From Eubacterium sp. (lineage in GTDB: Bacteria > Bacillota > Clostridia > Lachnospirales > Lachnospiraceae), in contig JAFUBZ010000001.1 in NCBI GenBank assembly GCA_017459945.1, positions 1 to 38,777 on the forward strand: a stretch of 38,777 nt of DNA. Direction: 5' to 3'. Numbering within the stretch: the stretch's first letter is position 1; each line of letters opens with the position of its first letter. Both the position numbers and the translations under genes were made by a program. Positions 3,464-37,238 of the stretch are shown here, in pieces. The notes beneath the pieces are model-generated. The model saw only the letters and a program-made list of their open reading frames with translations. It was not told the DNA's origin and did not search any database.

Positions 3464-5017
3464 ATGGGCAAAACAGTAAAAGTAGATGTAGCGGTCATGG
3501 GTAGCGGCGTTGCAGGAATGGGTGCAGCGTATAAGCTGGTTCAGGCAGGTGTAAAAGACATTGCGGTATTTGAGAAATATCCGGCACAGGGCGGCGCGGT
3601 TTCTAACTGCCCGATGATGTTCTGTTCCACACCCGACACACCGGAAGCACAGAAAGCAGCATACGAGGTTCTGGCAAGATTCTCCAACTATGACGGCAAT
3701 ATGAACCTGATCAGCAAGGTCGTAAAATACTCTTCAGAGTTCCCGCGTATCTTCCTCGAGGAGCTGGGAATCAAGTGCATGATCAAGGTTGACAGAGATC
3801 CGGCAGACTACGGAAATAAAAGAGCGTATACACAGGGCCATGCAAACGGCATCGATGTAGGAGATTATTATTTCCTGGAAGGACGCGGAAAAGGCCATGC
3901 GTTAGCACCCGCACTGCTTCGGATGCGTATCAATTTAGAAAAAGCAGGCGTACAGTTCTTCTTCCAGACTCCGATCAAAAAGATCGTAAAGACCGGAGAT
4001 AAAGTAACCGGTGCGATCGCATATGAAAAAGACGGCACAGAAGTTGAGATCCAGTGCAAAGCATTGATCGTTGCTTCAGGCGGAATCAGCGGAAACATGG
4101 AGATGATGAAGGAAGAAGGCGTCATCAATGTAGATCCGAAATTCGAAGAAGTATATGAAGAAGGTAAGCAGGTTCTGATCACATTCCCGGATAGCTGCCA
4201 GGATGGTGACGGACAGAAGGCTGTATGGGAGATCGGCGGAAAGAAGACTGCAATGGTCATCAGCGCAGATCCGGAAGTTCCGAACCCGGGCGTTCGTATC
4301 GGACCGAACACACCTTGGCTGAACGCAAACCAGATCAAGGTCGTTACAGAAATGCCATGGATGCGTGTCAATGAGCAGGGTAAGCGTTTCATCAATGAAG
4401 AAATGAGCAATCAGCACACCGCGATGAGCCGCGCATATTGCAAGCAGTCCAACATGCACGGATATCAGATCTTTGATGAGGATACTGTAAAACGCATGGA
4501 AGAAGAGTTTGATGAAAACTATGTATACTTCATCTTCAAGGGTGCAAAGCTTTCCGGCCTGCGTGAACAGATGGATGCTTCGATCGCAAAAGGCAATAAG
4601 CATATGTGTCATTTCGATACGATCCATGAAGTCGCAGAATACATGGGCATCAATGAAGCAAATCTGAAAGAGACAATCGCAAAATACAACAAGGCAGCCG
4701 AAGAAGGCTATGATCCGGACTTCCATACAGATGCAAAATACCTTCATCCGATCAGAGAAGAAAGCGGACACATTTACTGCTTCCGTATCTTCGCAGGTGC
4801 ATATGATACAATGGGTGGTCTGGCGATCGACGAGAATGCAAATCTTCTGGACATCAACAATCAGCCGATCGAAGGACTCTATGGCGCAGGCGATATGGTA
4901 ACAGGCAGCTTCTACGGTGAGCCGACCTCCAATGCAGGCGGTACCGTATACGGCGCAATGACAACAGGTTTTCTGGCAGGTGACAGCGCAGCTGCATATG
5001 TGCGCGAAAATTTCTAA
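3464..5017 (+). CDS. FAD-dependent fumarate-reductase-like flavoprotein (module A)
   Basis: A 517-residue cytoplasmic flavoprotein of the fumarate reductase/succinate dehydrogenase flavoprotein superfamily. FAD binding shows as G13-S-G15-x-x-G18 after a short beta strand, an acidic strand end (VFEKYPAQGG), LIVASGGISGN in the middle, and the C-terminal GLYGAGDMVTGSFYGEPTSNAGGTVYGAMTTGFLAGDSAA region. The substrate-domain signature RVNEQGKRFINEEM is present. It has no heme domain, FMN-binding domain or signal peptide, unlike the extracytoplasmic fumarate and urocanate reductases, so electrons must come from elsewhere; the ferredoxin gene starts 49 bases downstream and is the natural donor. Family members reduce activated C=C bonds or dehydrogenate ketosteroid-like rings. 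In an operon with a PhlG-like hydrolase, reduction of an enone or ring double bond before C-C cleavage is a reasonable inference. GGAAAGGGG precedes the ATG. Confidence 0.85.
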   Translation: MGKTVKVDVAVMGSGVAGMGAAYKLVQAGVKDIAVFEKYPAQGGAVSNCPMMFCSTPDTPEAQKAAYEVLARFSNYDGNMNLISKVVKYSSEFPRIFLEELGIKCMIKVDRDPADYGNKRAYTQGHANGIDVGDYYFLEGRGKGHALAPALLRMRINLEKAGVQFFFQTPIKKIVKTGDKVTGAIAYEKDGTEVEIQCKALIVASGGISGNMEMMKEEGVINVDPKFEEVYEEGKQVLITFPDSCQDGDGQKAVWEIGGKKTAMVISADPEVPNPGVRIGPNTPWLNANQIKVVTEMPWMRVNEQGKRFINEEMSNQHTAMSRAYCKQSNMHGYQIFDEDTVKRMEEEFDENYVYFIFKGAKLSGLREQMDASIAKGNKHMCHFDTIHEVAEYMGINEANLKETIAKYNKAAEEGYDPDFHTDAKYLHPIREESGHIYCFRIFAGAYDTMGGLAIDENANLLDINNQPIEGLYGAGDMVTGSFYGEPTSNAGGTVYGAMTTGFLAGDSAAAYVRENF

Positions 5018-5066
5018 CATTTTACTGATGAGTGAACAAATTCGATAATCGGGAAAGGAAATCAAG

Positions 5067-5261
5067 ATGAAATTAGAGATTAATAATAAATATTGCATCC
5101 GTTGTGGACTTTGTGAAGATCTGTATCCGGATCTGTTTAAGAGAAACTTTGAAGAGCATTGCATCGACGTTCTTCATGAAGAGCTTCCGGCTGAACTCGA
5201 AGAGCGCGCAAAGCAGGCAGTTGCTGACTGTGCAGTTGCAATGATCAAACTGGTAAAATAA
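5067..5261 (+). CDS. Small monocluster ferredoxin
   Basis: This 64-residue ferredoxin carries C10-x2-C13-x2-C16 (CIRCGLCEDLYPDLF) and a distal C55, the pattern of single [4Fe-4S] ferredoxins. The distal cysteine is followed by Ala (ADCAVAMI) rather than the usual Pro, and C32 is an extra cysteine. It lies between the flavoprotein and the PhlG-like hydrolase with short gaps (49 and 15 bases) and is probably co-transcribed as the electron donor or acceptor of the flavoprotein. GGAAAGGAAATCAAG precedes the ATG. Confidence 0.85.
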   Translation: MKLEINNKYCIRCGLCEDLYPDLFKRNFEEHCIDVLHEELPAELEERAKQAVADCAVAMIKLVK

Positions 5262-5276
5262 AGACAGGAGGAGAAG

Positions 5277-6092
5277 ATGGCTTTAGTACCCGTTTCAGAA
5301 GACGCAAAAACAAAAAGATATTACAAGTATTATGAGCAGGGAGTCGCTTCCCCGACACCGGAGCAGATTGCCATGGTCGATGCAAGCAAGGGGACGGTAG
5401 AGGAGTGCCTTGAGATCGAGGACAGAAATAAGGTTCTGGAGCCGGAAACACTCTATCCGGAGAGACTTGGATTCTATCCGACGAAAGACGGCGGCCTTCT
5501 GGTCGCAGGTAATATTCCGATGCCGGATTGTACAGCAGACATGTTCTACTGGTGGTTTGCATGGCATGGTCTTGAGCCGTTCCGCTATGCTATCTGGGAT
5601 CCGGAAGACCATTACGGCCTGGAGCTGAATGAAGAAGGCAGGCGCCGCGCACTGGATTCGTCTGTCCCGATGGAAGAGAAAACCTGGGGTGCAACGCATA
5701 CCGTTCAGGAATCGATCGGCGGACCGCCAGATGAGATCGTGATCATGTTCCAGAACCCGGCAGATATGGGAATGGACACCAGCCTGATCGGTAAGGAAGG
5801 CTGTGAATTCATCGTCTGCGCAAATGCGCTTCTCGGACCGATGAAAATGCCGGTCGTGATGCTCGAAGTCGCAAAGAAGATCGATGGTGTAATGACATTC
5901 CAGGCAAGATTCTGGGTGGGATATCATATCGTTGACGGGAAACCGCAGTGCCTTGTTCCGGCCTGGAAGGTCATTCCGGAGCAGGAATGTGAGATGATCG
6001 CAAAAGGTCTTCTGGCGCATAACCTCAAAGAGTTTGGAAATCTGAATAAGGTTCTGCCAAAGGTTTACGCGGAAGAAAAAGACAACTGGTAA
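5277..6092 (+). CDS. PhlG / phloretin-hydrolase-like C-C hydrolase, copy 1
   Basis: A 271-residue protein of the DAPG hydrolase (PhiG-domain) family, whose known members are Pseudomonas 2,4-diacetylphloroglucinol hydrolase PhlG and Eubacterium ramulus phloretin hydrolase. These zinc enzymes hydrolyse the C-C bond between an acyl group and a phloroglucinol ring. The core WWFAWHGLEPFRYAIWDPEDHYG, the HTVQESIGG segment and the closing GLLAHNLKEFGNLNKVLP helix are all present. Predicted metal ligands are H112, E145, H248 and E252; the H-x3-E of the last pair and the overall spacing fit PhlG (H129, E160, H270, E274 as I recall them). The protein is soluble with no signal peptide. It follows the flavoprotein and ferredoxin genes with 15 bases between and ends before a terminator, forming a tight three-gene unit. 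A paralogue sits at 35403. The substrate cannot be read from sequence: a phloretin-like ketone is one option, another 1,3-diketone equivalent is possible. Confidence 0.85.
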   Translation: MALVPVSEDAKTKRYYKYYEQGVASPTPEQIAMVDASKGTVEECLEIEDRNKVLEPETLYPERLGFYPTKDGGLLVAGNIPMPDCTADMFYWWFAWHGLEPFRYAIWDPEDHYGLELNEEGRRRALDSSVPMEEKTWGATHTVQESIGGPPDEIVIMFQNPADMGMDTSLIGKEGCEFIVCANALLGPMKMPVVMLEVAKKIDGVMTFQARFWVGYHIVDGKPQCLVPAWKVIPEQECEMIAKGLLAHNLKEFGNLNKVLPKVYAEEKDNW

Positions 6093-6112
6093 AAGAATAA
6101 CAGAATCATCAA

Positions 6113-6157
6113 AAGGATCCCTTGTTGCCAATATGGCGGCAGGGGGTCTTTTTTTTA
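6113..6157 (+). terminator. Rho-independent terminator after the flavoprotein-ferredoxin-hydrolase unit
   Basis: GATCCCTTGTTGCC (6116-6129) pairs, with some G-U pairs, with GGCGGCAGGGGGTC (6135-6148), and an eight-T run follows. It separates the first three module A genes from the SDR transcription unit. Confidence 0.8.
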
Positions 6158-6240
6158 CAGGGATCGAATCCCAGGCTTAGAGTAAAGTAACCATTTCTCC
6201 AAAAGAGTTGCTTTTGTAACGAACTCAGTTAGATTGACCA

Positions 6241-6318: not shown

Positions 6319-6338
6319 GGTTATGAGAGGACAAAACG

Positions 6339-7190: not shown

Positions 7191-7242
7191 CAGGCGGTCC
7201 GAACATTTACCGGGCACGCAAAACAGGAAAGAGGGATCAGCT

Positions 7243-19591: not shown

Positions 19592-19678
19592 AATATATCT
19601 TAACTCCTGTATTTGTGTGATTTCTTTGGTCATAACCGGTCCGGGTATTTTGCAAGCATTGGACCGGTAACTGATGAT

Positions 19679-21213: not shown

Positions 21214-21245
21214 GTGTTTTCCTTTTTATTATAGACAGGCGGTGA

Positions 21246-25346: not shown

Positions 25347-25360
25347 GAAAAGAGCATAAG

Positions 25361-25395
25361 AGTTTGTTGTATACAAACTATAGATATGGTATATT
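25361..25395 (+). promoter_or_regulatory. Promoter with inverted repeat over the -35
   Basis: TTGTAT (25367-25372), a 17-base spacer and TATATT (25390-25395) form a good sigma-70 promoter for the flavin reductase-rubredoxin operon. A perfect 7-base inverted repeat, AGTTTGT (25361-25367) and ACAAACT (25373-25379), flanks the -35 and could bind a repressor or activator. Confidence 0.65.
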
Positions 25396-25453
25396 TTTGA
25401 TGGTTGCAGTTACTAAACGGTAATTGGATCGTTTTTGGCAAAGGAGAAGAGAA

Positions 25454-26077: not shown

Positions 26078-26079
26078 AG

Positions 26080-27576
26080 TTGACAGACAGAGCAAAAACG
26101 ATCTTTGGAAACCATATTTCACAAAAGGATTATGAAAAAGCAGTGGCTTCCAAAGAAAAATACATTCGCCGGTTCGGGGATGATTCCGATCTTTCCTATC
26201 CGGTCAAATTACAGGAAAATGAAGTGATCGGGGACATTCTGGGCGTAAAGGATGTGATCCTTGGAAGACCTGCTTCCGGAAAACGGCCGCAGATCAGGCC
26301 CGCAGGGTTTGATGAAAAAAAGGGCCTGATTGTCGGAAACATTCGCATGGGATTTGGTCATTACAGGATTTCCATGGCGATCGCGTCCGCAGCCAATGCA
26401 CTTGGATACAAGCCATACTGGATGGATCTGAATTCATTTTCAGAGACGACCTGTACGAAAGTGATCAGTGCACAGAACGATCTGTATTCTCTGGGTTCCC
26501 GCATTTCGCAGAAAAGCAGGGTGTTTAATAAAGTGGTCTGGGAGCCGATGAATTATGAAGGCTTCCGTAAGCTTTCATACAATGCGTCCGATCAGAAAAA
26601 TGCGGAGCTGATGGCACCTGTGTTTTACAACATTCCAAAGGATATCCCTGTCATCGCGACACATGTCTGGCCGGCACAGGCAGCATTACATGCGGGCATG
26701 CAGTATGTCGTTAATGCAATCCCGGACAACTGGCCGATGGCATTGCATCTTGCAGAGGGAAGCCTGCATACGGTGCAGACGCACAGCGCTTACCTTGGAT
26801 ATCGTACCTTAAACGGCATGCGCGGGAAGGAAGTTCTGCATCCGATGCCGGAGGATTCCCTGCTTTACACTGGTCATTACATTGACCATGAACTCGTCAA
26901 AAACATTCAAAAAGACTGCAAGCGCCGTAAAAAGAGACAAAAGAATGGCGAACCGATGCGGTTTCTTTTGACCATCGGCGGTGCAGGGGCGCAAAAAGAG
27001 ATCTTTGCTGCGATCATCAGACACCTGATGCCTGCGATCAAAGAAAAGAAGGTGGCACTGTATGTCAATGTCGGAGATTACGAACACGTCTGGCATGAAC
27101 TGACCGCGGAGATCCCGGTTTTGCGAAAAGTGTCAAGGACACATTTCAATGACTGGGAGAACACCCGCAAGTTCTGTGAGAAGGCATTAGACGGTCGTGT
27201 GATCGGTGTGCATGCATTCTGTCATGACAATATTTTTGAGGCGGTCTATGTCACCAATCTGTTGATGCGAAGCTGTGACGTGCTGGTAACAAAACCGAGT
27301 GAGCTGGCATTTTATCCGGTTCCGAAGCTCTTTATCAAGCGGATCGGCGGACATGAAAAATGGGGCGCGATCCATTCGGCAGAGATCGGAGACGGCACGA
27401 TTGAGTGCGAGGATATCCCGCACATTCTGCAGATGATCGATCTGTTCCGGCAGGATGCATCTCTTTTGAAAGGCATGTGTGAAAACATCTGTGAGAACAA
27501 AGAGATGGGCATCTACGATGGTGCGTACCGCGCGGTGGAGGCAGCATTTGAGATGAAGAAAGCTGCAAAGGATTGA
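26080..27576 (+). CDS. GT-B-like protein of unknown function (MGDG synthase/MurG-like fold)
   Basis: A 498-residue cytoplasmic protein I cannot name. The N-terminal part has a nucleotide-fold loop GLIVGNIRMGFGHYRISMAIASAANALGY, resembling the G-x-G-H-x2-A loop of GT-B glycosyltransferases such as MurG or diacylglycerol glycosyltransferases. The C-terminal half has RFLLTIGGAGAQKEIFAAIIRHL and CDVLVTKPSELAFYPVPKLFIKRIGGHE, comparable to the donor-sugar site of the same fold. The first 85 residues are unassigned. Its best start is a TTG at 26080, with GGAGG about 8 bases upstream and the previous stop three bases before. It sits between the Hrb-like gene and a sugar symporter with tight spacing. 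A sugar or lipid glycosyltransferase is possible; a sugar-binding enzyme of another activity is also possible. Confidence 0.7.
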   Translation: MTDRAKTIFGNHISQKDYEKAVASKEKYIRRFGDDSDLSYPVKLQENEVIGDILGVKDVILGRPASGKRPQIRPAGFDEKKGLIVGNIRMGFGHYRISMAIASAANALGYKPYWMDLNSFSETTCTKVISAQNDLYSLGSRISQKSRVFNKVVWEPMNYEGFRKLSYNASDQKNAELMAPVFYNIPKDIPVIATHVWPAQAALHAGMQYVVNAIPDNWPMALHLAEGSLHTVQTHSAYLGYRTLNGMRGKEVLHPMPEDSLLYTGHYIDHELVKNIQKDCKRRKKRQKNGEPMRFLLTIGGAGAQKEIFAAIIRHLMPAIKEKKVALYVNVGDYEHVWHELTAEIPVLRKVSRTHFNDWENTRKFCEKALDGRVIGVHAFCHDNIFEAVYVTNLLMRSCDVLVTKPSELAFYPVPKLFIKRIGGHEKWGAIHSAEIGDGTIECEDIPHILQMIDLFRQDASLLKGMCENICENKEMGIYDGAYRAVEAAFEMKKAAKD

Positions 27577-27603
27577 GAGTAAAGATTGACGGAGGAAACG
27601 GTT

Positions 27604-28968
27604 ATGGCTTTAAATTTGCGGAGTAAGCTGGCATTCGGCTTTGGCGCATTTGGAAAAGACTTGGTTTACATGCTGGTCTCCAATTACATTTTGTATTATT
27701 ACAATGCAGTGCTTGGTGTCAGCAGTGTCTTTATCGGCGCGGTATTGATGGGCGCGCGTATCTTTGATGCGGTCAATGATCCGCTGATGGGTATCATTGT
27801 AGCAAAAACAAAGACAAGGTTTGGACGGTTCCGTCCCTGGATCTTAACGGGTACCGTGCTGAATGCCGTGACGATCTATGCATTGTTTTCCGCTCCGGCA
27901 CAGGCGTCAGGCGGCATGCTTCGCTGGTGGCTTGCGATCATTTACATTGCATGGGGTGTGACTTATACGATGATGGATATTCCGTTCTGGTCGATGATCC
28001 CTGCGATCACGAACCCGGGTGCGGAAAGAGAGCAGCTCTCCTCATTGGCAAGATCCTGCTCCGGCATCGGCGATGCGATCCCGATGGTCTTAACGATGGT
28101 TATCGTACCGATCCTAAGCGGCAGTGCGGTGATCGCGGATTACCGGATCGGTTTCCGGTACTGGGCGCTGATCATTGCCGTGATCTTCGTGATCTCTGAA
28201 ATCATTTTCGTGTTAAAGGTTCCGGAGAAAAAACCGACGGAGATGGAGTCTGTCGGTGTGGGCCAGATGTTTAAGGCGCTGTTTAAAAATGATCAGGCCA
28301 TGACAGCGGTCTTAGCCGTCATTCTGGTTTACCTGGCGCTGAATATCGTTGGCAACCTGATCCTGTATTTCTTCCAGTTTGATGTCGGAAACACAGGCGC
28401 ATACAGTATCTTTGTAGCGGCCTGCTTTGTGACACAGGTCATTGCGATGCTTCTGATTCCGCTGATCCGGAAAAAAGTCGATAAGATGCGATTGTTCCTG
28501 TATGCGATCCTTATCCAGATTCTCGGATTTGCAGTACTTTTGATCTTTGCATATTCGAACCTGTATCACACGGCCGGCTGGGGAATCCTGGTATTGCCGG
28601 GTGTTATGGTATATGCGGGATATGGCGTTTTGACCGTAATGCTGACCATTTTCCTGTCGGATACTGTAGATTACGGAGAACTGAAAAACGGACGCCGCGA
28701 AGAATCCGTGATCTTCTCCATGCAGACCTTCACCGTCAAGCTTGCATCCGGTATCGCGGTATTCAGTGCCGGTGTCGTCAGTAAAGTGGTGGCACTTGAT
28801 CCGCAGGCTGCTTCGCAGACGATCGCAACGTTAAACGGCCTTCGTATTTTCATGACGATCCCGTCCGCGATCATCTTGGTGATCGCGCTGATCGTATTCA
28901 AGAAATTCTATCGGCTCAACGATCAGAAGATGGAAGAGATCTCAGCAGAACTTTCTGCGCATGAATAA
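27604..28968 (+). CDS. GPH-family sugar:cation symporter
   Basis: A 454-residue membrane transporter of the glycoside-pentoside-hexuronide (MelB/XynP-like) family with about 12 helices. Typical features are the N-terminal KLAFGFGAFGKDLVYMLVSNYILYYY, the R-x-F-D-x-x-x-D-P-x-M-G motif (ARIFDAVNDPLMGIIVAKTKTRFGRFRPWIL), and SDTVDYGELKNGRREES late in the protein. It probably imports an oligosaccharide or glycoside for the adjacent GH36 and GH2 enzymes, coupled to Na+ or H+. I set the start at ATG 27604, with GGAGG eight bases ahead, instead of an upstream TTG. It ends one base before a palindromic repeat that precedes the GH36 gene. Confidence 0.92.
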   Translation: MALNLRSKLAFGFGAFGKDLVYMLVSNYILYYYNAVLGVSSVFIGAVLMGARIFDAVNDPLMGIIVAKTKTRFGRFRPWILTGTVLNAVTIYALFSAPAQASGGMLRWWLAIIYIAWGVTYTMMDIPFWSMIPAITNPGAEREQLSSLARSCSGIGDAIPMVLTMVIVPILSGSAVIADYRIGFRYWALIIAVIFVISEIIFVLKVPEKKPTEMESVGVGQMFKALFKNDQAMTAVLAVILVYLALNIVGNLILYFFQFDVGNTGAYSIFVAACFVTQVIAMLLIPLIRKKVDKMRLFLYAILIQILGFAVLLIFAYSNLYHTAGWGILVLPGVMVYAGYGVLTVMLTIFLSDTVDYGELKNGRREESVIFSMQTFTVKLASGIAVFSAGVVSKVVALDPQAASQTIATLNGLRIFMTIPSAIILVIALIVFKKFYRLNDQKMEEISAELSAHE

Positions 28969-28995
28969 GGAGACAGGGGACGGTTCTGTGTCTCC
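28969..28995. repeat. REP-like palindrome GGAGACA...TGTCTCC
   Basis: GGAGACA (28969-28975) and TGTCTCC (28989-28995) are inverted arms around GGGGACGGTTCTG. It begins immediately after the symporter stop codon. From memory, very similar GGGGACGGTTC-containing palindromes are dispersed in many Clostridia genomes, often linked to REP-associated tyrosine transposases; I could not check that here. Only one copy was seen in this window. Confidence 0.55.
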
Positions 28996-29009
28996 TCAAG
29001 GTGAAAGAT

Positions 29010-31508
29010 ATGATCAAACGAGAAGAAAATCTGTTTTCACTGCACACAACCAATACGACATATCTGTTCCAGGTGCTCGCAAGCGGGCATCTGGAGCATT
29101 TGTATTACGGCTCGGCTTTGGGCGAGGTCACTATGGAAGACGCAGATGCGTTGATGGAAAAGCGAGCGTTTGAGGCTGGCAATACGATCTGTTATGATCC
29201 TGCGCATAAAACGATCACACTGGAAGATCTGCGGCTTGAGGTGTCTGGCAGAGGAAAGGGAGATCTGCGGGAACCGTTTGTCGAACTGACTTTTGCAGAC
29301 GGAAGCCGGACAACGGATTTTCTGTTTGCAGAAGCACGAATTGAGAAGCTTCCAGACGAGATGCTTCCGAATGTGGATAAACGTTCGGATACAGTCGTAA
29401 ATGGACGGGCGGGGGATAAACTTGTCCTGCCACACGCATACGATGAGGCAGGGGAGGCTGAGCGTCTGACGATCGTTTTAAAAGAAGCCGTACAGCCGGT
29501 CAGGTTGGAACTCTACTATGATGTATTTGCAGATTGCGATGTCATCTGCCGAAGCGCAAAGCTGTTCAACGAAGGAAATACACCGGTCGTCATTGAAAGA
29601 CTCTTGTCGACGCAGCTGGATTTTTCTGACAGCGGGTATATGATGGGCGGTTTTTTTGGCGCCTGGGCAAGAGAGATGAACAGAGTGGATCTGCCCGTTT
29701 TGGCAGGAAAGCAGGTGGTCTCTTCGGTGACCGGTTCGTCTTCAAACCGCGCCAATCCGTTTGTGATGCTGTTTGAGGAAGACGCGACAGAAAAGCAGGG
29801 GATCTGCTATGGGTTCCATCTGCTCTACAGTGGAAATCACTATGAGGCAGCAGAAGTCAATGCGTATGGTAAGACGCGTTTTTGCGCCGGCATCAATCCG
29901 GACAGTTTTTCCTGGAACCTTCAGCCGGGGGATTCCTTTGAGAGTCCGCAAAGTGCCATGACGGTCTCCGGTCAGGGATTTGCCGGTATGAGTCATCAGA
30001 TGCATGCGTTCATCAGAGAGCACATCGTACGCGGAGCATGGAAAAAGAAAGTGCGTCCCGTATTGCTGAACAGCTGGGAAGCGGCTTATTTTGATATTGA
30101 TGAAAAAAAACTGTTGAAACTGGCGCAAAAAGCAAGCGAGGTGGGCATCGAGCTGTTTGTCATGGATGACGGATGGTTCGGAAACCGTGATAACGATCAG
30201 TCTTCTCTGGGTGACTGGTATGTTAATAAAAAGAAACTGCCCGGCGGACTTGCCGGTATTTGTAAAAAGATCAATGACCTGGGACTGCAGTTCGGGATCT
30301 GGGTCGAGCCGGAAATGGTAAATACAGACAGTGATCTGTATCGTGCACATCCTGACTGGGCGATGGAGATCCCGGGGCGCGCCCACTCTGAGGGACGTAA
30401 CCAGAGAGTACTGGATCTGGCAAATCCGGAAGTGGTTGATTATATGATCGAGAGGATGACAGAAGTCTTTTCTTCGGCAAATATCGCATATGTCAAATGG
30501 GATATGAACCGGATCTTTTCGGATGTTTACTCGCCATATCTGGCAGGCTGCGCCAATGTACGTAATGATGACAAGACTGCAGGAAAGACGGGACAAGCCG
30601 GGCAAATGCAGGCACTGCATCGGCAGGGCGAAACGGCGCACCGTTATATCTGCGGATTTTACCGGATGGCCGAAACGCTGACGAAACGTTTCCCGGATAT
30701 CCTTTTTGAAGGATGCGCGGCTGGCGGCAATCGGTTTGACGCGGGAATGCTTTGCTATTTCCCACAAATTTGGGCAAGTGACAATACGGATCCGATCAGT
30801 CGTGCAAGGATTCAGGAAGGCTACAGCTACGGATATCCGCTCTCTGTGATCTCTGCACATGTGTCCGGCAGTCCGAATCATCAGACGCTGCGGACAACAC
30901 CTTTGGATACCCGTTTTGCGGTTGCCATGTTTGGCAGTATGGGATATGAGTGCAATCTCGTGGATATGAGACAGCGGGATCTTGAGATCGTAAAGGAGCA
31001 GGTTGAACAATATAAAAAGTGGAGGGAAGTCATCCAGTTTGGTGATTTCTACAGAGTGAATCGTTCGTGCGGAAAGACACAGGATCACAACCGGTCACCG
31101 CTTCGCAGCTGGATCTGTGTGTCAAAAGACAAAAAAAGAGCGGTCGGCATGCTTTTACAGGAAATGGTCACTGCCAATACGCAGTATGCCAACTTCCGTG
31201 CAGAAGGACTGGATCCACAGAAAACATATCATTTTTACAACAAAAAGATTGATCAGAGTATCCTGCAGTTCGGAGATCTGATCAACACGGTTGCGCCATT
31301 CCATGTCCGCCAGGATTCCCTGACGCATCATGTGATCGCAAGATTCCAGCAGATGCCCGGAGAGCAGGAATATCACAGGGTGTCAGGCACAGTCCTGATG
31401 AATGCCGGTATCAGTCTGATGCAGGGCTTCTCCGGAACCGGGTACGATGAAAACGTACGGTACTTCCAGGATTATTCCGCACGTATCTATTATATGGAAG
31501 CGCGGTAA
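29010..31508 (+). CDS. GH36 alpha-galactosidase
   Basis: An 832-residue intracellular GH36 alpha-galactosidase, which removes terminal alpha-1,6-galactose from raffinose-family oligosaccharides or galactosylated glycosides. The N-terminal beta-sandwich (about 1-330) leads to the barrel with NSWEAAYFDIDEKKLLKLAQKASEVGIELFVMDDGWFG, FGIWVEPEMVNTDSDLY and the nucleophile D498 in YVKWDMNR. The acid/base is D591 in WASDNTD. The two catalytic Asp are 93 residues apart, about 20 more than usual, because of a Lys/Gly/Gln-rich insertion at about 509-540 (VRNDDKTAGKTGQAG). I set the start at ATG 29010, six bases after AAGGTG; a GTG at 29001 would add three residues. There is no signal peptide. The GPH symporter upstream fits as its importer. 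Confidence 0.9.
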   Translation: MIKREENLFSLHTTNTTYLFQVLASGHLEHLYYGSALGEVTMEDADALMEKRAFEAGNTICYDPAHKTITLEDLRLEVSGRGKGDLREPFVELTFADGSRTTDFLFAEARIEKLPDEMLPNVDKRSDTVVNGRAGDKLVLPHAYDEAGEAERLTIVLKEAVQPVRLELYYDVFADCDVICRSAKLFNEGNTPVVIERLLSTQLDFSDSGYMMGGFFGAWAREMNRVDLPVLAGKQVVSSVTGSSSNRANPFVMLFEEDATEKQGICYGFHLLYSGNHYEAAEVNAYGKTRFCAGINPDSFSWNLQPGDSFESPQSAMTVSGQGFAGMSHQMHAFIREHIVRGAWKKKVRPVLLNSWEAAYFDIDEKKLLKLAQKASEVGIELFVMDDGWFGNRDNDQSSLGDWYVNKKKLPGGLAGICKKINDLGLQFGIWVEPEMVNTDSDLYRAHPDWAMEIPGRAHSEGRNQRVLDLANPEVVDYMIERMTEVFSSANIAYVKWDMNRIFSDVYSPYLAGCANVRNDDKTAGKTGQAGQMQALHRQGETAHRYICGFYRMAETLTKRFPDILFEGCAAGGNRFDAGMLCYFPQIWASDNTDPISRARIQEGYSYGYPLSVISAHVSGSPNHQTLRTTPLDTRFAVAMFGSMGYECNLVDMRQRDLEIVKEQVEQYKKWREVIQFGDFYRVNRSCGKTQDHNRSPLRSWICVSKDKKRAVGMLLQEMVTANTQYANFRAEGLDPQKTYHFYNKKIDQSILQFGDLINTVAPFHVRQDSLTHHVIARFQQMPGEQEYHRVSGTVLMNAGISLMQGFSGTGYDENVRYFQDYSARIYYMEAR

Positions 31509-31613: not shown

Positions 31614-33179
31614 TTAAAACGAGATGTTTAACAGCTCAAATGAGAGCAGCAGTTTTAAACGGGTCTTCGGATCGTCAAAATCCAGACCATATTGCTCGCC
31701 GAGATTCTTAATATGATAGATCACATTGTTCCGGTGCATATCCATCTTTTTGGCAACATCGGTATAATTCCGGTCGCAGTTTAAGTATTCATAAAGGATG
31801 CGGACCTGCTGCCGGGATTTTTTTGTGTCTTTTTTGATCAGATCCAGCAGGCAGGGTTCGCAGTAATAGGATACCTGATCCCTGACCGGATTCTGATAGA
31901 TCAGATCCTGCACAACATAATCTTCAAAAAAGAAAAACGGAATTTTGGAACCGGCTGCAGGAGTGGCGAACTCCCGCATGTTTGCAGCCTGTTTATAAGC
32001 CCCCGGGAAGTTGCTGATCGTAAAAAACGGCCGGCTGAAGTATACCTGCATTTTTTGATGGGAGAAACTGTTCAGCAAGGACTGCAAGAATGTTGTCAGA
32101 TACTCCCGGTAGTTTGGCAGCTGTGCTGAAGGGATCTGGTGCAGGATGATCACTGCATCATGCCAGGAAAAGATCTGACTGTTGACCATATTATTTCTTA
32201 ACTGCTGCAGGAAAAACTGTTCTGCGGATTTTTTGCTGACATCCGATTCGATCAGAGTCAGGACGAAGTTTCCTTCAAAAGGAAGTTCGCTGTAATAGAT
32301 GCGTTCTTTGATCTGTTCCGGCGAAGTGTCCGGATTCTCCAGAAGATCCATCAGCAGATAGTCTGTGACGGAACGATCGCGCAGGAAGGTTGTATGCCTT
32401 TTTTTCAAAATACGTTCAACAGCATCACACAGGACATCAAATAATTGTTTTTCATAGATGCGCGGAAGCTTATCCGTAAACAGTAAAACACAGTATACGG
32501 CGAGCTGGTTACTGATCTTGACAGTGCGGAAATAAGCGGGGGTCTTGTCCGTATCATCTTTGCTGAAGGCAAGACCCTGATCGTTCAACGTTTCAAAATA
32601 ATTCTGTTTTTCCAAAAACTTGACCGTTTCCATATTCAGATAGCCTGACCGAATCGCTTCCGGATAAAAAGGACTGTTAACATCCGGCTGAAAGACGGAT
32701 TGTGCCAGCAGTTTCAATGCGGGGTCATAAAGAAGCATGGCGGAAGCTATTTTTTCTTCTGCAATGTTGATCAGTTCCTGAAAAGGCGCGTCCTGAAAAA
32801 CAGCAAAATCCAGCTTCCGTTCCCAGTCTGCAAATGCAGAAAAGTGACTCTGCAGATCATTGAATCCATGTGCCAGTTCGAAAGGGGATTGTAAAACGGT
32901 CGTATTGTTCGGCGAGGGCGAATCTGCTTTTTCGGTATTGCTGCCGCCAAGACTGTTCCGGTTGGCAAAACAGACAATGGAGACGTCCTGATCGATATCA
33001 GAAAGCAAAGAAAGCTGTCCCTGGTCTGTGACATACAAATAGTCTTGATCTAAAGTGGACAGATCCTCCGGCAGAAGGCGAAGTCCGATGATCTCTTTTT
33101 CGCCGTTGGAAAAAGGTGCCTCTGCCTCCGGATGGTCTGCAAAAAAACTGGTTAAGATCATTTCTATGGTAATCGTCAT
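31614..33179 (-). CDS. PucR/CdaR-type transcriptional regulator
   Basis: A 521-residue regulator. The N-terminal region (about 1-180) is of the PucR N-terminal/catabolite-sensor kind, the middle holds GAF-like and GGDEF-like CdaR segments (NFVLTLIESDVSKKSAEQFFLQQLRN), and the C-terminal PucR-type HTH is LLDLIKKDTKKSRQQVRILYEYLNCDRNYTDVAKKMDMHRNNVIYHIKNLGEQYGLDFDDPKTRLKLLLSFEL. Such proteins usually activate catabolic genes in response to the substrate. The start is the ATG at 33179 behind AGGAGGG; the frame extends 13 codons further without a ribosome site. It is divergent from the ferredoxin-flavoprotein-hydrolase operon beginning at 33394, its most likely target. A short inverted repeat sits in the shared intergenic region. 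Confidence 0.85.
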   Translation of the reverse strand: MTITIEMILTSFFADHPEAEAPFSNGEKEIIGLRLLPEDLSTLDQDYLYVTDQGQLSLLSDIDQDVSIVCFANRNSLGGSNTEKADSPSPNNTTVLQSPFELAHGFNDLQSHFSAFADWERKLDFAVFQDAPFQELINIAEEKIASAMLLYDPALKLLAQSVFQPDVNSPFYPEAIRSGYLNMETVKFLEKQNYFETLNDQGLAFSKDDTDKTPAYFRTVKISNQLAVYCVLLFTDKLPRIYEKQLFDVLCDAVERILKKRHTTFLRDRSVTDYLLMDLLENPDTSPEQIKERIYYSELPFEGNFVLTLIESDVSKKSAEQFFLQQLRNNMVNSQIFSWHDAVIILHQIPSAQLPNYREYLTTFLQSLLNSFSHQKMQVYFSRPFFTISNFPGAYKQAANMREFATPAAGSKIPFFFFEDYVVQDLIYQNPVRDQVSYYCEPCLLDLIKKDTKKSRQQVRILYEYLNCDRNYTDVAKKMDMHRNNVIYHIKNLGEQYGLDFDDPKTRLKLLLSFELLNISF

Positions 33180-33235
33180 CAGCGTTCCCTCCTGTGTTTC
33201 ATAAGAGAAGAATAGCATGTCTTAGATAAACATAA

Positions 33236-33393: not shown

Positions 33394-33630
33394 ATGAACA
33401 AAATCATCGTAAGCAAAGATCTGTGTGTGGGATGCCAGATCTGCTTCAAGTCCTGTTTTATCGATGTTATCAAATGGGACGCAGAGAAACGGATGCCGAT
33501 CATCAAATATCCGGAAGAGTGCGTACAGTGCGGTTTTTGTGAACTGAACTGTCCGAAGCGTGCGATCAAAATGGAACCGGATTATGAGAACTATATGTTC
33601 CCGCGCGAGAACATCTTCACAATGGATTGA
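33394..33630 (+). CDS. 2[4Fe-4S] ferredoxin (module B)
   Basis: A 78-residue ferredoxin with two full motifs, CVGCQICFKSC and CVQCGFCELNCP, separated by 24 residues that include the DAEKRMPII loop. It resembles the beta (ferredoxin) subunits that partner AprA-like flavoproteins. It is the first gene of module B, 21 bases before the flavoprotein gene, and ATAGGAGG precedes its ATG. It should supply electrons to that flavoprotein. Confidence 0.92.
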   Translation: MNKIIVSKDLCVGCQICFKSCFIDVIKWDAEKRMPIIKYPEECVQCGFCELNCPKRAIKMEPDYENYMFPRENIFTMD

Positions 33631-33651
33631 TCGAATAAGGAGGAAAAGCTG

Positions 33652-35388
33652 ATGGCAAATTATAAGACAGATCTCCTGGTGGTTGGCGGCTCTCTTGCGG
33701 GGCTTGCAGCAGCGATCACTGCAAAGGAGGAGAATCCGGAGGTGGAAGTACTTCTGGTAGAGAAATACACGACAGGTTATGCGGGAAAAGCAAACCGCGG
33801 TGCAGGTATCATGGATATGATCGGGGAATCCGACCCGGAAGACTATGTCAAATATCATACCCATTATATCGGGGAATACTTAAATGATCAGGACGCGCTT
33901 CGTCAGTATGCAAATACACTGGATGACGGTGTTGCACTTCTGGACAAATGGTCAAACGGAAAGATCAATAAGAACGAAGACGGATCCTTTAAAACACTGA
34001 AGTGGCTGGCACAGATCACAGGAGAAGATGAGAACGGCAAGCGTACGTTTGACGAGCCGGATCATTTCCCGTGGACACTGGTCTGCGTAGAGCTGGATTA
34101 TCTGATCAATGTAAGACGTTACGCTATGAAAGCAGGCGTAAAGATCGTTGACCGTGTAGGCGTTGTTGACCTGTTGAAGGACGGCGACCGTATCAGCGGT
34201 GCTGTCGGATATCACATTGATACAGAGGAGCAGATCGTATTTGAAGCGAAGGCAGTTCTTCTGGCAACCGGTTCCCAGAACTATCGTGTTATGCCGATGT
34301 GGTCACCGGGACGTGGCGAAGGTCTTGCGGCAGCATGGCGTGCAGGCGCGCAGTTCAGAAACTGTGAGTTTGGTTCTTTCTACAACTGGACTTCTCCGGA
34401 TCACTTTGAATCCAATATGGGCGTTGAGTTTGCGCTGTTCAATGATAAAGGCGTCAATGTTGGCCTTCCGCTTTGTCAGGGTGAGCACCCGGATGTAGAT
34501 GCGCGTTCACTTGCAGAATGTTATAAGCAGGTGATGGCAGGTAATGGTCCGATGCATTACCGCATTCAGGACAATCCGCTGATGCCGTATCTGTCTTCCG
34601 TATTGGCAAGCGATTCCTATTTTGACCGTCCGTATGCAGATGACTTCTGGGGCAGACTGTTCTTTAATGCATTTTCACAGCAGCTTTCGGATATCTGTAT
34701 CCCAGGTCTGATCGGTGAGTTCTCCGGATTGAAAGTAGATCATAATTTTGCGACAACCATTCCGGGACTCTATGCTGCAGGTGACATCTGCTACGGCGGT
34801 TCTGCCACAGCGGGTGCTGTACCGCCGCCGCCGGGACGTGTCAGAGGATCAGGTCTTGCATTTGCTCAGTATTCCGGACGTGTTGCGGGACCGAAAGCAG
34901 CAGAATACTGCAAGAACGCAGCACAGGGGGCGATCAACGATGCAGATATCAAGGCGATTGATGAACGCTTTATGGCACCGAAGAAAAACGGCGGTTCTGT
35001 CAAGGTAATGGACTTCATTCCGGAAATCCACAAGGTTATGCAGCCACTCGGCAACAGCCTGTATCGTCATGAAGATCGTATTCAGAAAGCGATTGATCGT
35101 ATTGAGGAACTGAAGGTAAAAGTGAATGAAGTGGGTGCAGAGGACGCGCACAACCTGTTTGGTGCAAATGAGATCCAGTCCATGCTGATCTGTGCAGAGC
35201 TTTTCTTCAGATCATCACTCTTAAGAAAAGAGAGCAGAGGATGGTTCTTGAGAGAAGACTATCCGGATCGTGATGATTCCGTCATCAAATGGTACACGAT
35301 GCAGAATGTCAATGGCGAGATGGTAAGTGGCGAAGAGATCGTACCGATTGATCAGTACACCTATAAGCCGGCGCCGATCACAGATTGA
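33652..35388 (+). CDS. FAD-dependent AprA/fumarate-reductase-like flavoprotein (module B)
   Basis: A 578-residue flavoprotein of the succinate dehydrogenase/fumarate reductase/AprA superfamily. The FAD loop is V-G12-G-S-L-A-G17 (third position Ser instead of Gly, a known variant), followed by an E-K strand end (LLVEKYTTGYAGKANRG). AVLLATGSQNYRVMP lies in the middle, and IPGLYAAGDICYGGSATAGAVPPPPGRVRGSGLAFAQYSGRVAG near residue 370-410. The C-terminal 150 residues contain a helical AprA/SdhA-like region (ALEIRSMLICAELFFRSSLLRKESRGWFLREDYP). The proline-rich VPPPPGR replaces the usual GANRLGG. Together with the ferredoxin it forms an AprAB-like pair, but an APS-reductase role is unlikely because no sulfur genes are near. 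Reduction of an unsaturated or aromatic ring substrate is inferred. It overlaps the region of the hydrolase ribosome site by only a few bases. Confidence 0.85.
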   Translation: MANYKTDLLVVGGSLAGLAAAITAKEENPEVEVLLVEKYTTGYAGKANRGAGIMDMIGESDPEDYVKYHTHYIGEYLNDQDALRQYANTLDDGVALLDKWSNGKINKNEDGSFKTLKWLAQITGEDENGKRTFDEPDHFPWTLVCVELDYLINVRRYAMKAGVKIVDRVGVVDLLKDGDRISGAVGYHIDTEEQIVFEAKAVLLATGSQNYRVMPMWSPGRGEGLAAAWRAGAQFRNCEFGSFYNWTSPDHFESNMGVEFALFNDKGVNVGLPLCQGEHPDVDARSLAECYKQVMAGNGPMHYRIQDNPLMPYLSSVLASDSYFDRPYADDFWGRLFFNAFSQQLSDICIPGLIGEFSGLKVDHNFATTIPGLYAAGDICYGGSATAGAVPPPPGRVRGSGLAFAQYSGRVAGPKAAEYCKNAAQGAINDADIKAIDERFMAPKKNGGSVKVMDFIPEIHKVMQPLGNSLYRHEDRIQKAIDRIEELKVKVNEVGAEDAHNLFGANEIQSMLICAELFFRSSLLRKESRGWFLREDYPDRDDSVIKWYTMQNVNGEMVSGEEIVPIDQYTYKPAPITD

Positions 35389-35402
35389 TAGGAGGAAAGC
35401 AG

Positions 35403-36260
35403 ATGAATCCACAGGATAGAAAACCAATCGGTCTGACCGATAAAGAAAAATTAAGCCCTGTTGCAAAATATTATACAGAAGAACTGGCGCCGCCGACCAA
35501 TCCGGCAGCGCTGCAGGCCCTGCTTGCAGGACCGATGGATCCAAAGCTTGCAAAGGATCCGTATGAAACGGCAAAGATCATGCTTCAGCCGGGGTATGTA
35601 GAAGGCGAGAACGGATATTGCATCATGGAAGATGGCTGCGGTTATCTTTCAGTCAACAATAAATTTCCAGGCGTTACGCTTGATATGATCAAATGGTGGT
35701 TTGCATGGCATCCGCTTGACAGTCTCCGCTATAAAATCTGGAATCCATATTGTCATCCATATGCAGCGATCGCTGATGTAGACAGAGAAAAAATCCTGGA
35801 TCCGAACATTCCAATCGAAGAGAAGAGTACAGATGTGGTACACTTTGTATGTGAAGACATCGGTGGCGGCGTACAGGATATCGTCATCCACTTCCGTCCG
35901 GTAGAGGAACTTGGTTTTACAAAGGAAGAGCTGGCCGAAGCGCATGCATGGGTAGCAGGCGGCTATGGTCTGGTAGAAAACCGCGTCGGCGAAAAAGGAA
36001 AAGCTCCTGTTATCATGATGCACTATTATCGTGAAACAGAGGATGGCATTGAATCCAGAACCCATTTCTGGATGGGATACCGTGTCGTTCAGGGCAAAAT
36101 GGTCAGAGTACTTCCGCCGGGCGTAAAGATTCCGGAGTTCATTCCGATGGGACTGGCATTGCACAATGTAGAGGAATTCTCACATCTGGCAAGCATTCTG
36201 CCGAAGGTTTATGCTGAGTTCGGAAGCCAGCCGTTCGATGCAGGTCTGGTAGAGTATTAA
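35403..36260 (+). CDS. PhlG / phloretin-hydrolase-like C-C hydrolase, copy 2
   Basis: A 285-residue second member of the DAPG hydrolase family. The core KWWFAWHPLDSLRYKIWNPYCHPY, VCEDIGGGVQDIVIHF and MGLALHNVEEFSHLASILPKVY segments are conserved; predicted zinc ligands are H118, E151, H254 and E258. It shares motif order and spacing with copy 1 (5277-6092) but differs in most loops, so the two probably act on different substrates. The stop codon of the flavoprotein lies 14 bases before the ATG and TAGGAGGAAAG lies between, so it is co-transcribed. The FMN ene-reductase-like gene follows 12 bases later. The reaction, by family, is hydrolytic C-C cleavage of an acyl-phloroglucinol-like compound. 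Confidence 0.85.
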   Translation: MNPQDRKPIGLTDKEKLSPVAKYYTEELAPPTNPAALQALLAGPMDPKLAKDPYETAKIMLQPGYVEGENGYCIMEDGCGYLSVNNKFPGVTLDMIKWWFAWHPLDSLRYKIWNPYCHPYAAIADVDREKILDPNIPIEEKSTDVVHFVCEDIGGGVQDIVIHFRPVEELGFTKEELAEAHAWVAGGYGLVENRVGEKGKAPVIMMHYYRETEDGIESRTHFWMGYRVVQGKMVRVLPPGVKIPEFIPMGLALHNVEEFSHLASILPKVYAEFGSQPFDAGLVEY

Positions 36261-36272
36261 AGGAGGCATCTC

Positions 36273-37238
36273 ATGAACAGAGTATGTGAAGTGTTGGGAA
36301 TTGAAAAACCGGTCATTCAGGGACCGATGGCGTGGATCTCTACAGCACCATTGGTTGCTGCAGTATCCAATGCAGGCGGCCTGGGTGTTCTGGGTGTTGG
36401 TTTTGCACCGGAACCGTTTATTATGGATCAGATCGCTAAGACCAGAGAGCTGACGGATAAGCCGTTTGGTATGAACTGTATCATGATCCCGGATAATCTG
36501 GAGCATGTGACAGGAATCATCACAGCAGCAAAACCGCCAGTTGTTTACGCAGACACCATTGACGGACTGGATCCGGCTCTCTGCAAGAAATATTTTGATA
36601 TCTGGCATGAAGCAGGCTGCAAGATCATCGTAAAGGCATCTCATATTGCGGATGCAAAGGTTGCAGCAGACGCCGGATGCGACGTCATGATCGTGAAAGG
36701 CTGGGAAGGCGGCGGACATGTTACTTTTGAAGCAACCACAGTTCTCGTTCCGCAGGCAGTCGATCTTCTGGATATGCCGGTTGTAGCTTCCGGCGGACTG
36801 GCAGACGGACGCGGTATCGCAGCTGCGATTGCAATGGGCGCTGACGGATTCGAAATGGGTACTGCCTTCATGGCAGCATGCGCAAACATGGTACATCCGA
36901 ATGTGAAGCAGGCAGTCATCGATGCCGGTGATATGTCAACCGTTATCACCGGATACTCTACAGATGAGCCTTGCCGTCAGATCAAAAATAAGCTGGCGAA
37001 CGAGCTGATCGCGATCGAAGCGAACCACACCAAGGCAGAAGCAGCAGAACTCCTTCGCCCGGTAGCGGAAAGCTCCTTAAAGAAAGCGATGATGGAAGGT
37101 GATATGGAAGACGGTGCCGTTATGGCAGGTCAGATCACAGCGCTGATCAAAGAAGAGCGTCCTGCAGCAGTCATCATCGATGCAGCGATTGCAGAAGCAA
37201 AAGAGATCCTTGCAAAAATGCCGGCATTTGAGTTTTAA
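36273..37238 (+). CDS. FMN-dependent nitronate monooxygenase/FabK-like oxidoreductase
   Basis: A 321-residue TIM-barrel FMN enzyme of the 2-nitropropane dioxygenase/FabK superfamily. Seen are KPVIQGPMAWISTAPLVAAVSNAGGLGVL, PFGMNCIM, KASHIADAKVAADAGCDVMIVKGWEGGGHV with the FabK-type His H149, and the FMN phosphate segment MPVVASGGLADGRGIAAAIAMGADGFEMGTAFMA. The conserved E-A-G-G-H is present as E-G-G-G-H. A FabK role in fatty acid synthesis is unlikely in this operon, which has no fab genes. Reduction of a C=C bond of an enone or unsaturated acid is a better fit to the context, though nitronate oxidation cannot be excluded. AAAGGAGG precedes the ATG. It is the last gene before an 11-bp palindrome that may end the operon. 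Confidence 0.85.
   Translation: MNRVCEVLGIEKPVIQGPMAWISTAPLVAAVSNAGGLGVLGVGFAPEPFIMDQIAKTRELTDKPFGMNCIMIPDNLEHVTGIITAAKPPVVYADTIDGLDPALCKKYFDIWHEAGCKIIVKASHIADAKVAADAGCDVMIVKGWEGGGHVTFEATTVLVPQAVDLLDMPVVASGGLADGRGIAAAIAMGADGFEMGTAFMAACANMVHPNVKQAVIDAGDMSTVITGYSTDEPCRQIKNKLANELIAIEANHTKAEAAELLRPVAESSLKKAMMEGDMEDGAVMAGQITALIKEERPAAVIIDAAIAEAKEILAKMPAFEF

What the first reader, a model, noticed from the sequence alone, without database searches (positions are those of the whole stretch)
3464..37238. Two separate ferredoxin-flavoprotein-PhlG hydrolase modules in one window
Seen: 3464-6092 (FAD flavoprotein, monocluster ferredoxin, hydrolase) and 33394-36260 (2[4Fe-4S] ferredoxin, FAD flavoprotein, hydrolase) have the same three functions in tight operons, with different regulators (TetR; PucR/CdaR). 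Both hydrolases keep four predicted Zn ligands (H112/E145/H248/E252 and H118/E151/H254/E258). Known: PhlG-family enzymes cleave acyl-phloroglucinol C-C bonds. Inferred: each module reduces a conjugated or aromatic substrate with low-potential electrons and then cleaves it hydrolytically, a reductive route for dietary polyphenols or similar ketones. The coupling of an AprA- or fumarate-reductase-like flavoprotein plus ferredoxin to this hydrolase is not an architecture I know to be described.
Basis: partly seen in the sequence, partly recalled or inferred. Interest (0 to 1): 0.85.

Follow-up and report, generated by a model that had tools for sequence, protein, structure and literature searches.

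The report
Flavoprotein–ferredoxin partners of phloretin-type hydrolases
A bacterium carries two separate gene sets that each pair a flavin enzyme and a ferredoxin with an enzyme of the phloretin-hydrolase family, and in two related genomes the second kind of flavin enzyme is fused to the hydrolase in one protein; each set likely reduces a plant polyphenol and would then cut it in two.

Summary
Both modules are where stated; both hydrolases are PF18089 (PhlG/phloretin hydrolase family) with the four Zn ligands. The flavoproteins belong to different branches: F1 to flavocytochrome-c/vinylphenol-reductase-like enzymes, F2 to the FrdA/AprA/PAPS-reductase branch.

The coupling of F2 plus ferredoxin to the hydrolase is real. 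F2 lies within 3 kb of the hydrolase in 30 of 80 named loci from several phyla. In 397 genomes of the window's family, 14 of 18 F2 homologues adjoin a PF18089 gene, two of them fused to it. Other hydrolases sit beside an OYE-type (Fcr-like) reductase, as in the published FLR-Fcr-Phy operon of Clostridium butyricum. A DPGC-type enzyme (next step of phloroglucinol breakdown) is in 18 of 29 PF18089 genomes, against 4 of 368 others, and in the window's own genome. So Fd2-F2 most likely does the reductive step before Phy-type cleavage.

Module 1 is weaker: F1-Fd1 is a constant pair (10 of 10 close homologues), but the hydrolase follows in only 5 of 10.

A new variant of a known pathway type. Unexpected: Zn-lost hydrolase paralogues beside F2. 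Substrate and reaction are inferred.

The parts
2715..3308 (-). TetR-family regulator, divergent from module 1
   Evidence: TetR_N 38.3 bits; kept beside F1-Fd1-H1 in L119, L151, L152
3464..5017 (+). F1: FAD flavoprotein of the flavocytochrome-c / vinylphenol-reductase-like branch
5067..5261 (+). Fd1: single-cluster type ferredoxin
   Evidence: Fer4_13 43.6 bits; Cys 10, 13, 16, 32, 55
5277..6092 (+). H1: PF18089 hydrolase, Zn ligands H112, E145, H248, E252
   Evidence: 194.5 bits
31614..33218 (-). PucR-type regulator, divergent from module 2
   Evidence: HTH_30 46.9 bits, GGDEF_2 26.1 bits
33394..33630 (+). Fd2: 2[4Fe-4S]-type ferredoxin
   Evidence: Fer4_7 41.9 bits; 8 Cys
33652..35388 (+). 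F2: FAD flavoprotein of the FrdA/AprA/PAPS-reductase branch
35403..36260 (+). H2: PF18089 hydrolase, Zn ligands H118, E151, H254, E258 (ORF listed from TTG 35385)
   Evidence: 228.1 bits
36273..37238 (+). FabK/nitronate-monooxygenase-type FMN enzyme, fourth gene of module 2
   Evidence: NMO 181.7 bits; TIGR03151 284.8 bits, cut-off 453.1 not reached; beside F2 in 12 of 121 loci, one of them a duplicate
37272..37314 (+). Hairpin after module 2, terminator-like
   Evidence: 20 pairs, 9 G-C; a consensus match only

Best explanation
Each module is likely a reduce-then-cut pathway: its flavoprotein, predicted to take electrons from the ferredoxin encoded beside it, would reduce a conjugated polyphenol such as a flavanone or chalcone to a dihydrochalcone-type acyl-phloroglucinol, which the Zn hydrolase would then split into phloroglucinol and an aryl-propionate. 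For module 2, Fd2-F2 is proposed to stand in for the OYE-type flavanone-cleaving reductase (Fcr) of the known FLR-Fcr-Phy pathway, and the FabK-like enzyme possibly for the flavone reductase FLR; phloroglucinol would go on through the PGR-DPGC-TfD-TAL route, of which homologues of the last three are found in this incomplete genome. Shown: gene content, family membership, Zn ligands, conserved neighbourhood, fusions, co-occurrence with a DPGC-type enzyme. Inferred: electron donor, substrate, reaction, order of steps. That the genus mate G230 keeps several unlike modules suggests one module per substrate class.
For: Fusion: F2 and a complete PF18089 domain in one ORF in L149 and L135, with the four ligands. 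Neighbourhood: F2 within 3 kb in 30 of 80 named loci and adjoining or fused to PF18089 at 14 of 18 places in the family sample. Same hydrolase family beside an OYE-type enzyme in 14 of 80 loci, the published FLR-Fcr-Phy order; H2 is 48-50% identical to the hydrolases of five such Clostridium loci. DPGC-type enzyme in 18 of 29 PF18089 genomes against 4 of 368 others; own genome has dehydrogenase-DPGC-BKACE, G230 also PGR; L149 has the fused gene and this set together. For module 1: F1-Fd1-H1 with divergent TetR in L119, L151, L152; 16 shared contig lengths of F1 and H1 homologues against 0 for F1 and H2.
Against: No substrate or activity is known. 28 of 80 loci have no F2, F1 or OYE-type gene within 3 kb, so the hydrolase works without such a neighbour too. 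L068 and L085 hold both F2 and an OYE-type gene, and PMC8084988 reports FCR in MAGs that also appear here with F2 (L030, L035), so F2 need not replace Fcr. FLR-like genes occur with F2 in only 1 of 16 loci, so F2 sets may serve other substrates than flavones. In 2 of the 14 adjoining cases (L175, L176) the only hydrolase seen has lost its Zn ligands. Module 1: hydrolase missing at 5 of 10 close F1-Fd1 pairs. H1 is only 34-37% identical to the Clostridium hydrolases. PGR itself was not found in the window's incomplete genome (best 32%).
Confidence: 0.5

Rival explanations
1. Cut first, reduce later: the hydrolase acts on an unsaturated acyl-phloroglucinol and the flavoprotein reduces the freed cinnamate-type acid or its vinylphenol, as relatives do with acrylates and vinylphenols.
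For: F1 scores best with vinylphenol reductase (175.2 bits, cut-off 600); both flavoproteins belong to a superfamily that reduces C=C of acrylates.
Against: In the published pathway reduction precedes hydrolysis. Residues recalled as catalytic for the dicarboxylate in flavocytochrome c3 are replaced in F1.
Confidence: 0.17
2. Same two-step logic, but the substrate is not a flavonoid: another acyl-phloroglucinol or beta-diketone, for example hop or fern acylphloroglucinols or a microbial DAPG-type compound.
For: PF18089 includes enzymes for DAPG (PhlG) and phloretin; FLR-like genes are rare beside F2 (1 of 16); own genome has four PF18089 genes and G230 seven matches, two of them weak.
Against: H2 is closest among tested references to hydrolases of the FLR-OYE type loci (48-50%), against 29% to PhlG.
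Confidence: 0.15
3. The flavoprotein reduces the aromatic ring of phloroglucinol or its acyl derivative and the hydrolase cuts the reduced ring or side chain.
For: Low-potential ferredoxin would suit ring reduction; F1's structural neighbours include ketosteroid and cyclohexanone dehydrogenases.
Against: PGR- and DPGC-type genes for that job lie in the same operon as the fused gene in L149 and in 10 or more of these genomes.
Confidence: 0.08
4. Module 1 is not a functional unit with its hydrolase: F1-Fd1 is a general ferredoxin-linked reductase that merely lies beside H1 in some species.
For: 5 of 10 close F1-Fd1 pairs lack a PF18089 neighbour; an alpha/beta-hydrolase gene follows in L187 and, for a more distant pair, a thioesterase-like gene in L188.
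Against: TetR / F1-Fd1-H1 order kept in three further genomes, two of other genera, and probably in L184, cut by the contig end; 16 shared contig lengths.
Confidence: 0.2

Closest known systems
FLR-Fcr-Phy gene set of Clostridium butyricum and the E. ramulus flavonoid pathway (PMC11868195, section 14 read; PMC7862272, passages)
   Same: Reductase gene beside a phloretin-hydrolase-family gene in an operon-like row; H2 is 48-50% identical to hydrolases of like Clostridium loci
   Different: Reductase is a FrdA/AprA-type (module 2) or VprA-type (module 1) flavoprotein with its own ferredoxin gene, not an OYE-type Fcr; no FLR-like gene in the modules
PhlG, 2,4-diacetylphloroglucinol hydrolase (3HWP; PMC8003664, passages)
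   Same: PF18089 fold family and Zn ligands
   Different: 29% identity; NCBIfam PhlG cut-off not reached; PhlG Y229 is F in H1 and H2
M. abscessus phloretin hydrolase (5XE5)
   Same: Same family and ligands
   Different: 33% (H2) and 28% (H1) identity
Adenylylsulfate reductase AprBA, PAPS reductase and fumarate reductase flavoprotein subunits
   Same: F2 fold; a 2[4Fe-4S]-type ferredoxin gene beside it, as AprB beside AprA (recalled)
   Different: About 21% identity; the middle third of F2 (about 245-357) is outside the printed alignments to SdhA; genomic partner is a hydrolase
Vinylphenol reductase VprA, urocanate reductase, flavocytochrome c3
   Same: F1 family and fold
   Different: Far below the VprA cut-off (175.2 of 600 bits); separate ferredoxin gene; dicarboxylate residues replaced
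Phloroglucinol degradation cluster PGR-DPGC-TfD-TAL (PMC10470551, passages)
   Same: Homologues in many PF18089 genomes and next to some Fd-F2-hydrolase sets; the paper's Fig. 8 legend lists DAPG_hydrolase
   Different: In the window's genome it lies on another contig, C53

Membership tests
PF18089 DAPG/phloretin hydrolase family (H1, H2) | Pfam gathering score 22.7 | tested here: met
   194.5 and 228.1 bits
PF18089 DAPG/phloretin hydrolase family (H1, H2) | His-Glu-His-Glu Zn site | tested here: met
PhlG equivalog (NF047887) | curated cut-off 600 bits | tested here: not met
   86.7 and 117 bits
Phloretin hydrolase (Phy) activity | cleaves phloretin to phloroglucinol and 4-hydroxyphenylpropionate | not testable with these tools
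   needs an assay; E. ramulus Phy sequence itself was not compared
FLR-Fcr-Phy flavonoid operon | OYE-type Fcr beside the hydrolase | tested here: not met
   modules hold FrdA/AprA- or VprA-type flavoproteins
FLR-Fcr-Phy flavonoid operon | FLR-like gene in the row | tested here: not met
   none in the modules; FabK-like gene in module 2
Fumarate/adenylylsulfate reductase flavoproteins (F2) | curated NCBIfam cut-offs | tested here: not met
   best 159.6 of 587 bits (PRK08275), AprA 89.8 of 641.75
Fumarate/adenylylsulfate reductase flavoproteins (F2) | fold | tested here: met
   Foldseek TM 0.74-0.77 to 8A8O, 1KF6, 6AWF, 1JNR
Vinylphenol reductase VprA (F1) | curated cut-off 600 bits | tested here: not met
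   175.2 bits
Flavocytochrome c fumarate reductase (F1) | R402, H504, R544 of S. frigidimarina Fcc3 (roles recalled) | tested here: not met
   N316, Y447, S489 by the alignment
FabK enoyl-ACP reductase (36273-37238) | TIGR03151 cut-off 453.1 | tested here: not met
   284.8 bits

The most novel reading that the evidence does not exclude
Anaerobes evolved a second, ferredoxin-driven class of C-ring-opening reductase from the fumarate/AprA flavoprotein stock; it works as a complex with a phloretin-type hydrolase (fused twice), and PhlG-fold paralogues that lost their Zn site were recruited more than once as non-catalytic parts that hold or hand over the substrate.
Probability: 0.3. Interest if true: 0.82.

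Novelty: new variant of a known kind. Interest (0 to 1): 0.62.

Why it matters
Surveys of flavonoid breakdown search with a set of known enzymes (FLR, CHI, Fcr, Phy; for example PMC8398226, abstract and passages seen). If Fd2-F2 does the Fcr step, organisms without an Fcr can still open flavonoids and such searches would undercount them, in the gut and in anoxic soil (MAGs titled CTSoil_007, _080 and _081, of the kind discussed in PMC8084988, passages seen, are among the loci: L030, L035, L036). The fusions and the Zn-less paralogues make substrate hand-over between a redox flavoenzyme and a C-C hydrolase directly testable.

Tried and rejected
Rejected: 'the modules are copies of each other' (H1 and H2 31% identical; flavoproteins of different branches). 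Rejected: 'hydrolases outside the PhlG family'. Rejected: F1 as a plain fumarate reductase. Led nowhere: promoter scans (at or below chance); paper searches. Considered and left: a thiolytic way of freeing the acyl group (thiolase, zf-ChsH2/DUF35-type and ptb/buk genes near H3 and H4 on contigs C32 and C22), not part of the modules.

Literature: the searches (0 papers; 2; 1; 3; 11, Pseudomonas and biocontrol by title) gave no paper that, from the listing, describes a flavoprotein-ferredoxin-PhlG-type hydrolase set. I looked for ferredoxin and/or fumarate reductase inside PMC8398226, PMC12940152, PMC7862272 (no hits), PMC8084988 (one reference-list hit for ferredoxin), PMC7911950 (one docking remark on FrdA), PMC11170127 (ferredoxin in other contexts) and, for phloroglucinol and flavoprotein, PMC3971608 (other enzymes). 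Only open papers are held, no preprints; other listed papers were not opened.
Full report
WHAT IS THERE. The window is contig C44 of an unnamed 1.44 Mb, 64%-complete genome. Module 1 is a TetR gene (2715-3308, minus) divergent from F1 (3464-5017), Fd1 (5067-5261) and H1 (5277-6092). Module 2 is a PucR-type gene (31614-33218, minus) divergent from Fd2 (33394-33630), F2 (33652-35388), H2 (35403-36260; the ORF is listed from TTG 35385, but GGAGGA stands before ATG 35403) and a FabK/nitronate-monooxygenase-type gene (36273-37238). Gaps are 49 and 15, then 21, 14 and 12 nt. A long hairpin follows at 37272-37314. Both hydrolases are PF18089 and align with PhlG and the M. abscessus phloretin hydrolase, ligands included. 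H1 and H2 are 31% identical.

THE FLAVOPROTEINS DIFFER. F1 scores best with vinylphenol reductase and flavocytochrome c models; its AlphaFold model (pLDDT 87.1) matches flavocytochrome c3 and urocanate reductase. By the alignment, three residues that I recall as catalytic in flavocytochrome c3 (R402, H504, R544) are N316, Y447 and S489 in F1. F2 scores with fumarate reductase and adenylylsulfate reductase models; its model (pLDDT 87.6) matches archaeal PAPS reductase, FrdA and AprA at about 21% identity. Neither reaches a curated cut-off among the rows shown.

CONSERVATION OF MODULE 2. A scan of named genomes with alignment A1 confirmed 308 loci and kept the best 80 by likeness to H2, so the set leans towards H2-like genes. 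Within 3 kb on the same strand, 30 of 80 have F2 (counted first), 7 an F1-type and 14 an OYE-type gene, 28 none of these, and in 1 my script found no hydrolase. In L021 and L024, counted as none, an F1-type gene lies a little farther off. The 30 records with F2 are titled as various Bacillota, actinobacteria, Acidobacteria/Holophagaceae/Bryobacterales, Spirochaetales and Desulfobacteraceae. Over 121 loci, taking gene-hydrolase pairs with genes of at least 300 aa, F2 makes up 38 of 313 pairs within 2 kb and 12 of 718 farther off. The loci are related and L133 repeats L011, so the Fisher value of 1e-11 is a guide only. In 397 genomes of the window's family, own genome included, PF18089 is in 29 (27 above the cut-off) and F2 (E up to 1e-70, three candidates scored per genome) at 18 places in 12 genomes. 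Fourteen of the 18 adjoin or are fused to a PF18089 gene; one of these (G309:C11) was missed and found on reading the stretch. The other four: G379:C110 (contig ends about 400 bases beyond the ferredoxin), G309:C85 (thiolase-, DUF35-, ptb- and buk-like genes nearby), G219:C25 and G067:C3.

FUSIONS. In L149 (G229) and L135 (G261) one ORF of 818 and 813 aa holds the flavoprotein and a complete PF18089 domain (207.1 and 245.6 bits) with its four ligands. Both have a ferredoxin gene beside them, and L149 goes on with MFS, PGR-type SDR, dehydrogenase, DPGC-type and BKACE homologues. In the Acidobacteria loci L059, L060 and L073, F2 carries a degenerate C-terminal PF18089 piece (24.9, 27.2 and 22.8 bits, cut-off 22.7), with a separate complete hydrolase domain beside it.

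ALTERNATIVES BESIDE THE SAME HYDROLASE FAMILY. In Clostridium and Flavonifractor loci the hydrolase often sits with an OYE-type enzyme (one tested: 454.8 bits to BaiCD, cut-off 825 not reached) and an FMN-reductase-type protein that I call FLR-like (length, FMN_red in one tested member, and place in the row), or with an F1-like enzyme plus GltD/NuoG- and NuoF-like partners. The FLR-Fcr-Phy row is published for C. butyricum, whose Phy is 57% identical to the characterised E. ramulus enzyme (PMC11868195, section 14). H2 is 48-50% and H1 34-37% identical to hydrolases of five such Clostridium loci (L014, L019, L020, L022, L023); the E. ramulus sequence was not at hand. FLR-like genes occur with F2 in 1 of 16 loci, while F2 is in 41 of 121. 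L068 and L085 hold both F2 and an OYE-type gene, so exclusion is not strict. On a tree of 127 hydrolases (quick method, support by SH-aLRT) the F2 label needs 13 changes against a shuffled mean of 35.5: clustered, yet gained or lost repeatedly.

LINK TO PHLOROGLUCINOL. DPGC cleaves dihydrophloroglucinol and is of the 'cyclase' family (PMC10470551, passages). I used as probe a cyclase-family protein (PF04199) lying between PGR-type and BKACE-type genes in L145; it was not compared with the tested enzyme itself. It is matched (E up to 1e-60) in 22 of 397 family genomes: 18 of the 29 with PF18089 and 4 of the 368 without (Fisher 3.6e-20, relatedness ignored). The window's genome has dehydrogenase, DPGC- and BKACE-type genes at the very start of contig C53; its genus mate G230 has PGR-type, dehydrogenase, DPGC- and BKACE-type genes in a row.

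MODULE 1. F1 (E up to 1e-70, three candidates scored per genome) occurs at 15 places in 9 of 397 genomes; 10 are at least 67% identical. All 10 have an Fd1-like gene next to F1. A hydrolase follows in 5 (window, L119, L151, L152, and L184, where an 84-aa piece scoring 35 bits is cut by the contig end) and not in L182, L183, L185, L186, L187. In L187 an alpha/beta-hydrolase gene follows instead. Of the other five places I read two (L188, L189) and not three. In L119, L151 and L152 the divergent TetR is kept; L153 has H1 and Fd1 with only a piece of F1. Listed F1 and H1 homologues (120 of 165 and 120 of 166) share 16 longest-contig lengths; F1 and the 72 H2 homologues share none. L054, a separate Lachnospiraceae MAG, has a module-2 set, with its hydrolase gene in two pieces, and an F1-Fd1 pair close by.

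ZN-LESS PARALOGUES. Of 140 aligned PF18089 rows (two reference enzymes and a few duplicates included), 131 keep H-E-H-E, three are cut short (L041, L054, L061) and six have lost ligands. Five of the six (L148, L170, L175, L176, L177) lie directly beside Fd2-F2; three of these loci (L148, L170, L177) also hold an intact hydrolase, and L175 and L176 show none in the stretch read. The sixth (L155) has no F2 nearby. Four of the five are 44-54% identical to each other, L177 stands apart. With the degenerate pieces in Acidobacteria, this suggests that the PhlG fold was kept beside F2 as a non-catalytic part more than once. The ligand calls rest on a MAFFT alignment of diverged sequences.

READING. 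That F2 and the hydrolase serve one pathway is well supported by linkage and fusion; that F2 does an Fcr-type reduction and H2 the Phy-type cut is the best mechanism I can offer and is untested. For module 1 the same is proposed with less weight. Confidence was lowered slightly on re-checking (0.55 in my notes to 0.5) because two adjoining cases have only a Zn-less hydrolase and because PMC8084988 reports FCR in MAGs that also have F2 here. Interest 0.62: the enzyme class, the fusions and the Zn-less paralogues would surprise a specialist, while the pathway logic is known.

Noticed in passing
L148:8418-9128, L170:6085-6810, L175:5847-6707, L176:6629-7441, L177:5907-6704: PF18089 paralogues that have lost Zn ligands, each directly beside Fd2-F2; three loci also hold an intact hydrolase.
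   Followed up: partly
L005 (G000:C32) and L006 (G000:C22): The window's genome has two more PF18089 genes. Near them lie thiolase, PTA_PTB and acetokinase-family genes, in L005 also a phosphopantetheine-binding protein, an acyl-ACP thioesterase-like protein, an [FeFe]-hydrogenase-like protein and further ferredoxin-flavoprotein pairs, in L006 a zf-ChsH2 protein. A thiolytic, ATP-yielding way of freeing an acyl group is conceivable.
   Followed up: partly
L006:7900-9306: This hydrolase ORF is 468 aa, with about 190 extra residues at its C-terminus; a like ORF of 468 aa is in G230 (L120). The extra part was not identified.
   Followed up: no
1769-2755: 3-hydroxyacyl-CoA-dehydrogenase-family gene beside module 1; it scores 328 bits with the dehydrogenase of the phloroglucinol-type row in L145.
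   Followed up: partly
18650-21818: Genes of a 2-oxoacid:ferredoxin oxidoreductase type (TPP_enzyme_C, POR_N, POR) lie between the modules and could supply reduced ferredoxin.
   Followed up: no
22794-31508: Run of a GH2 glycosidase, flavin-reductase/rubredoxin protein, DUF6937/6938 protein, MFS_2 sugar transporter and GH36 alpha-galactosidase.
   Followed up: no
L188 (G230:C35:1-13000): A distant F1-Fd1 pair (38% identity) is followed by a gene 51% identical to the thioesterase-like protein of L005.
   Followed up: no
L028, L030, L056, L086 (Holophagaceae CTSoil_007): One soil MAG has four PF18089 loci, L030 with Fd-F2 and L056 with an OYE-type gene; PMC8084988 reports phloretin hydrolase peptides from a Holophaga MAG (passage), but which gene is not known to me.
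   Followed up: partly
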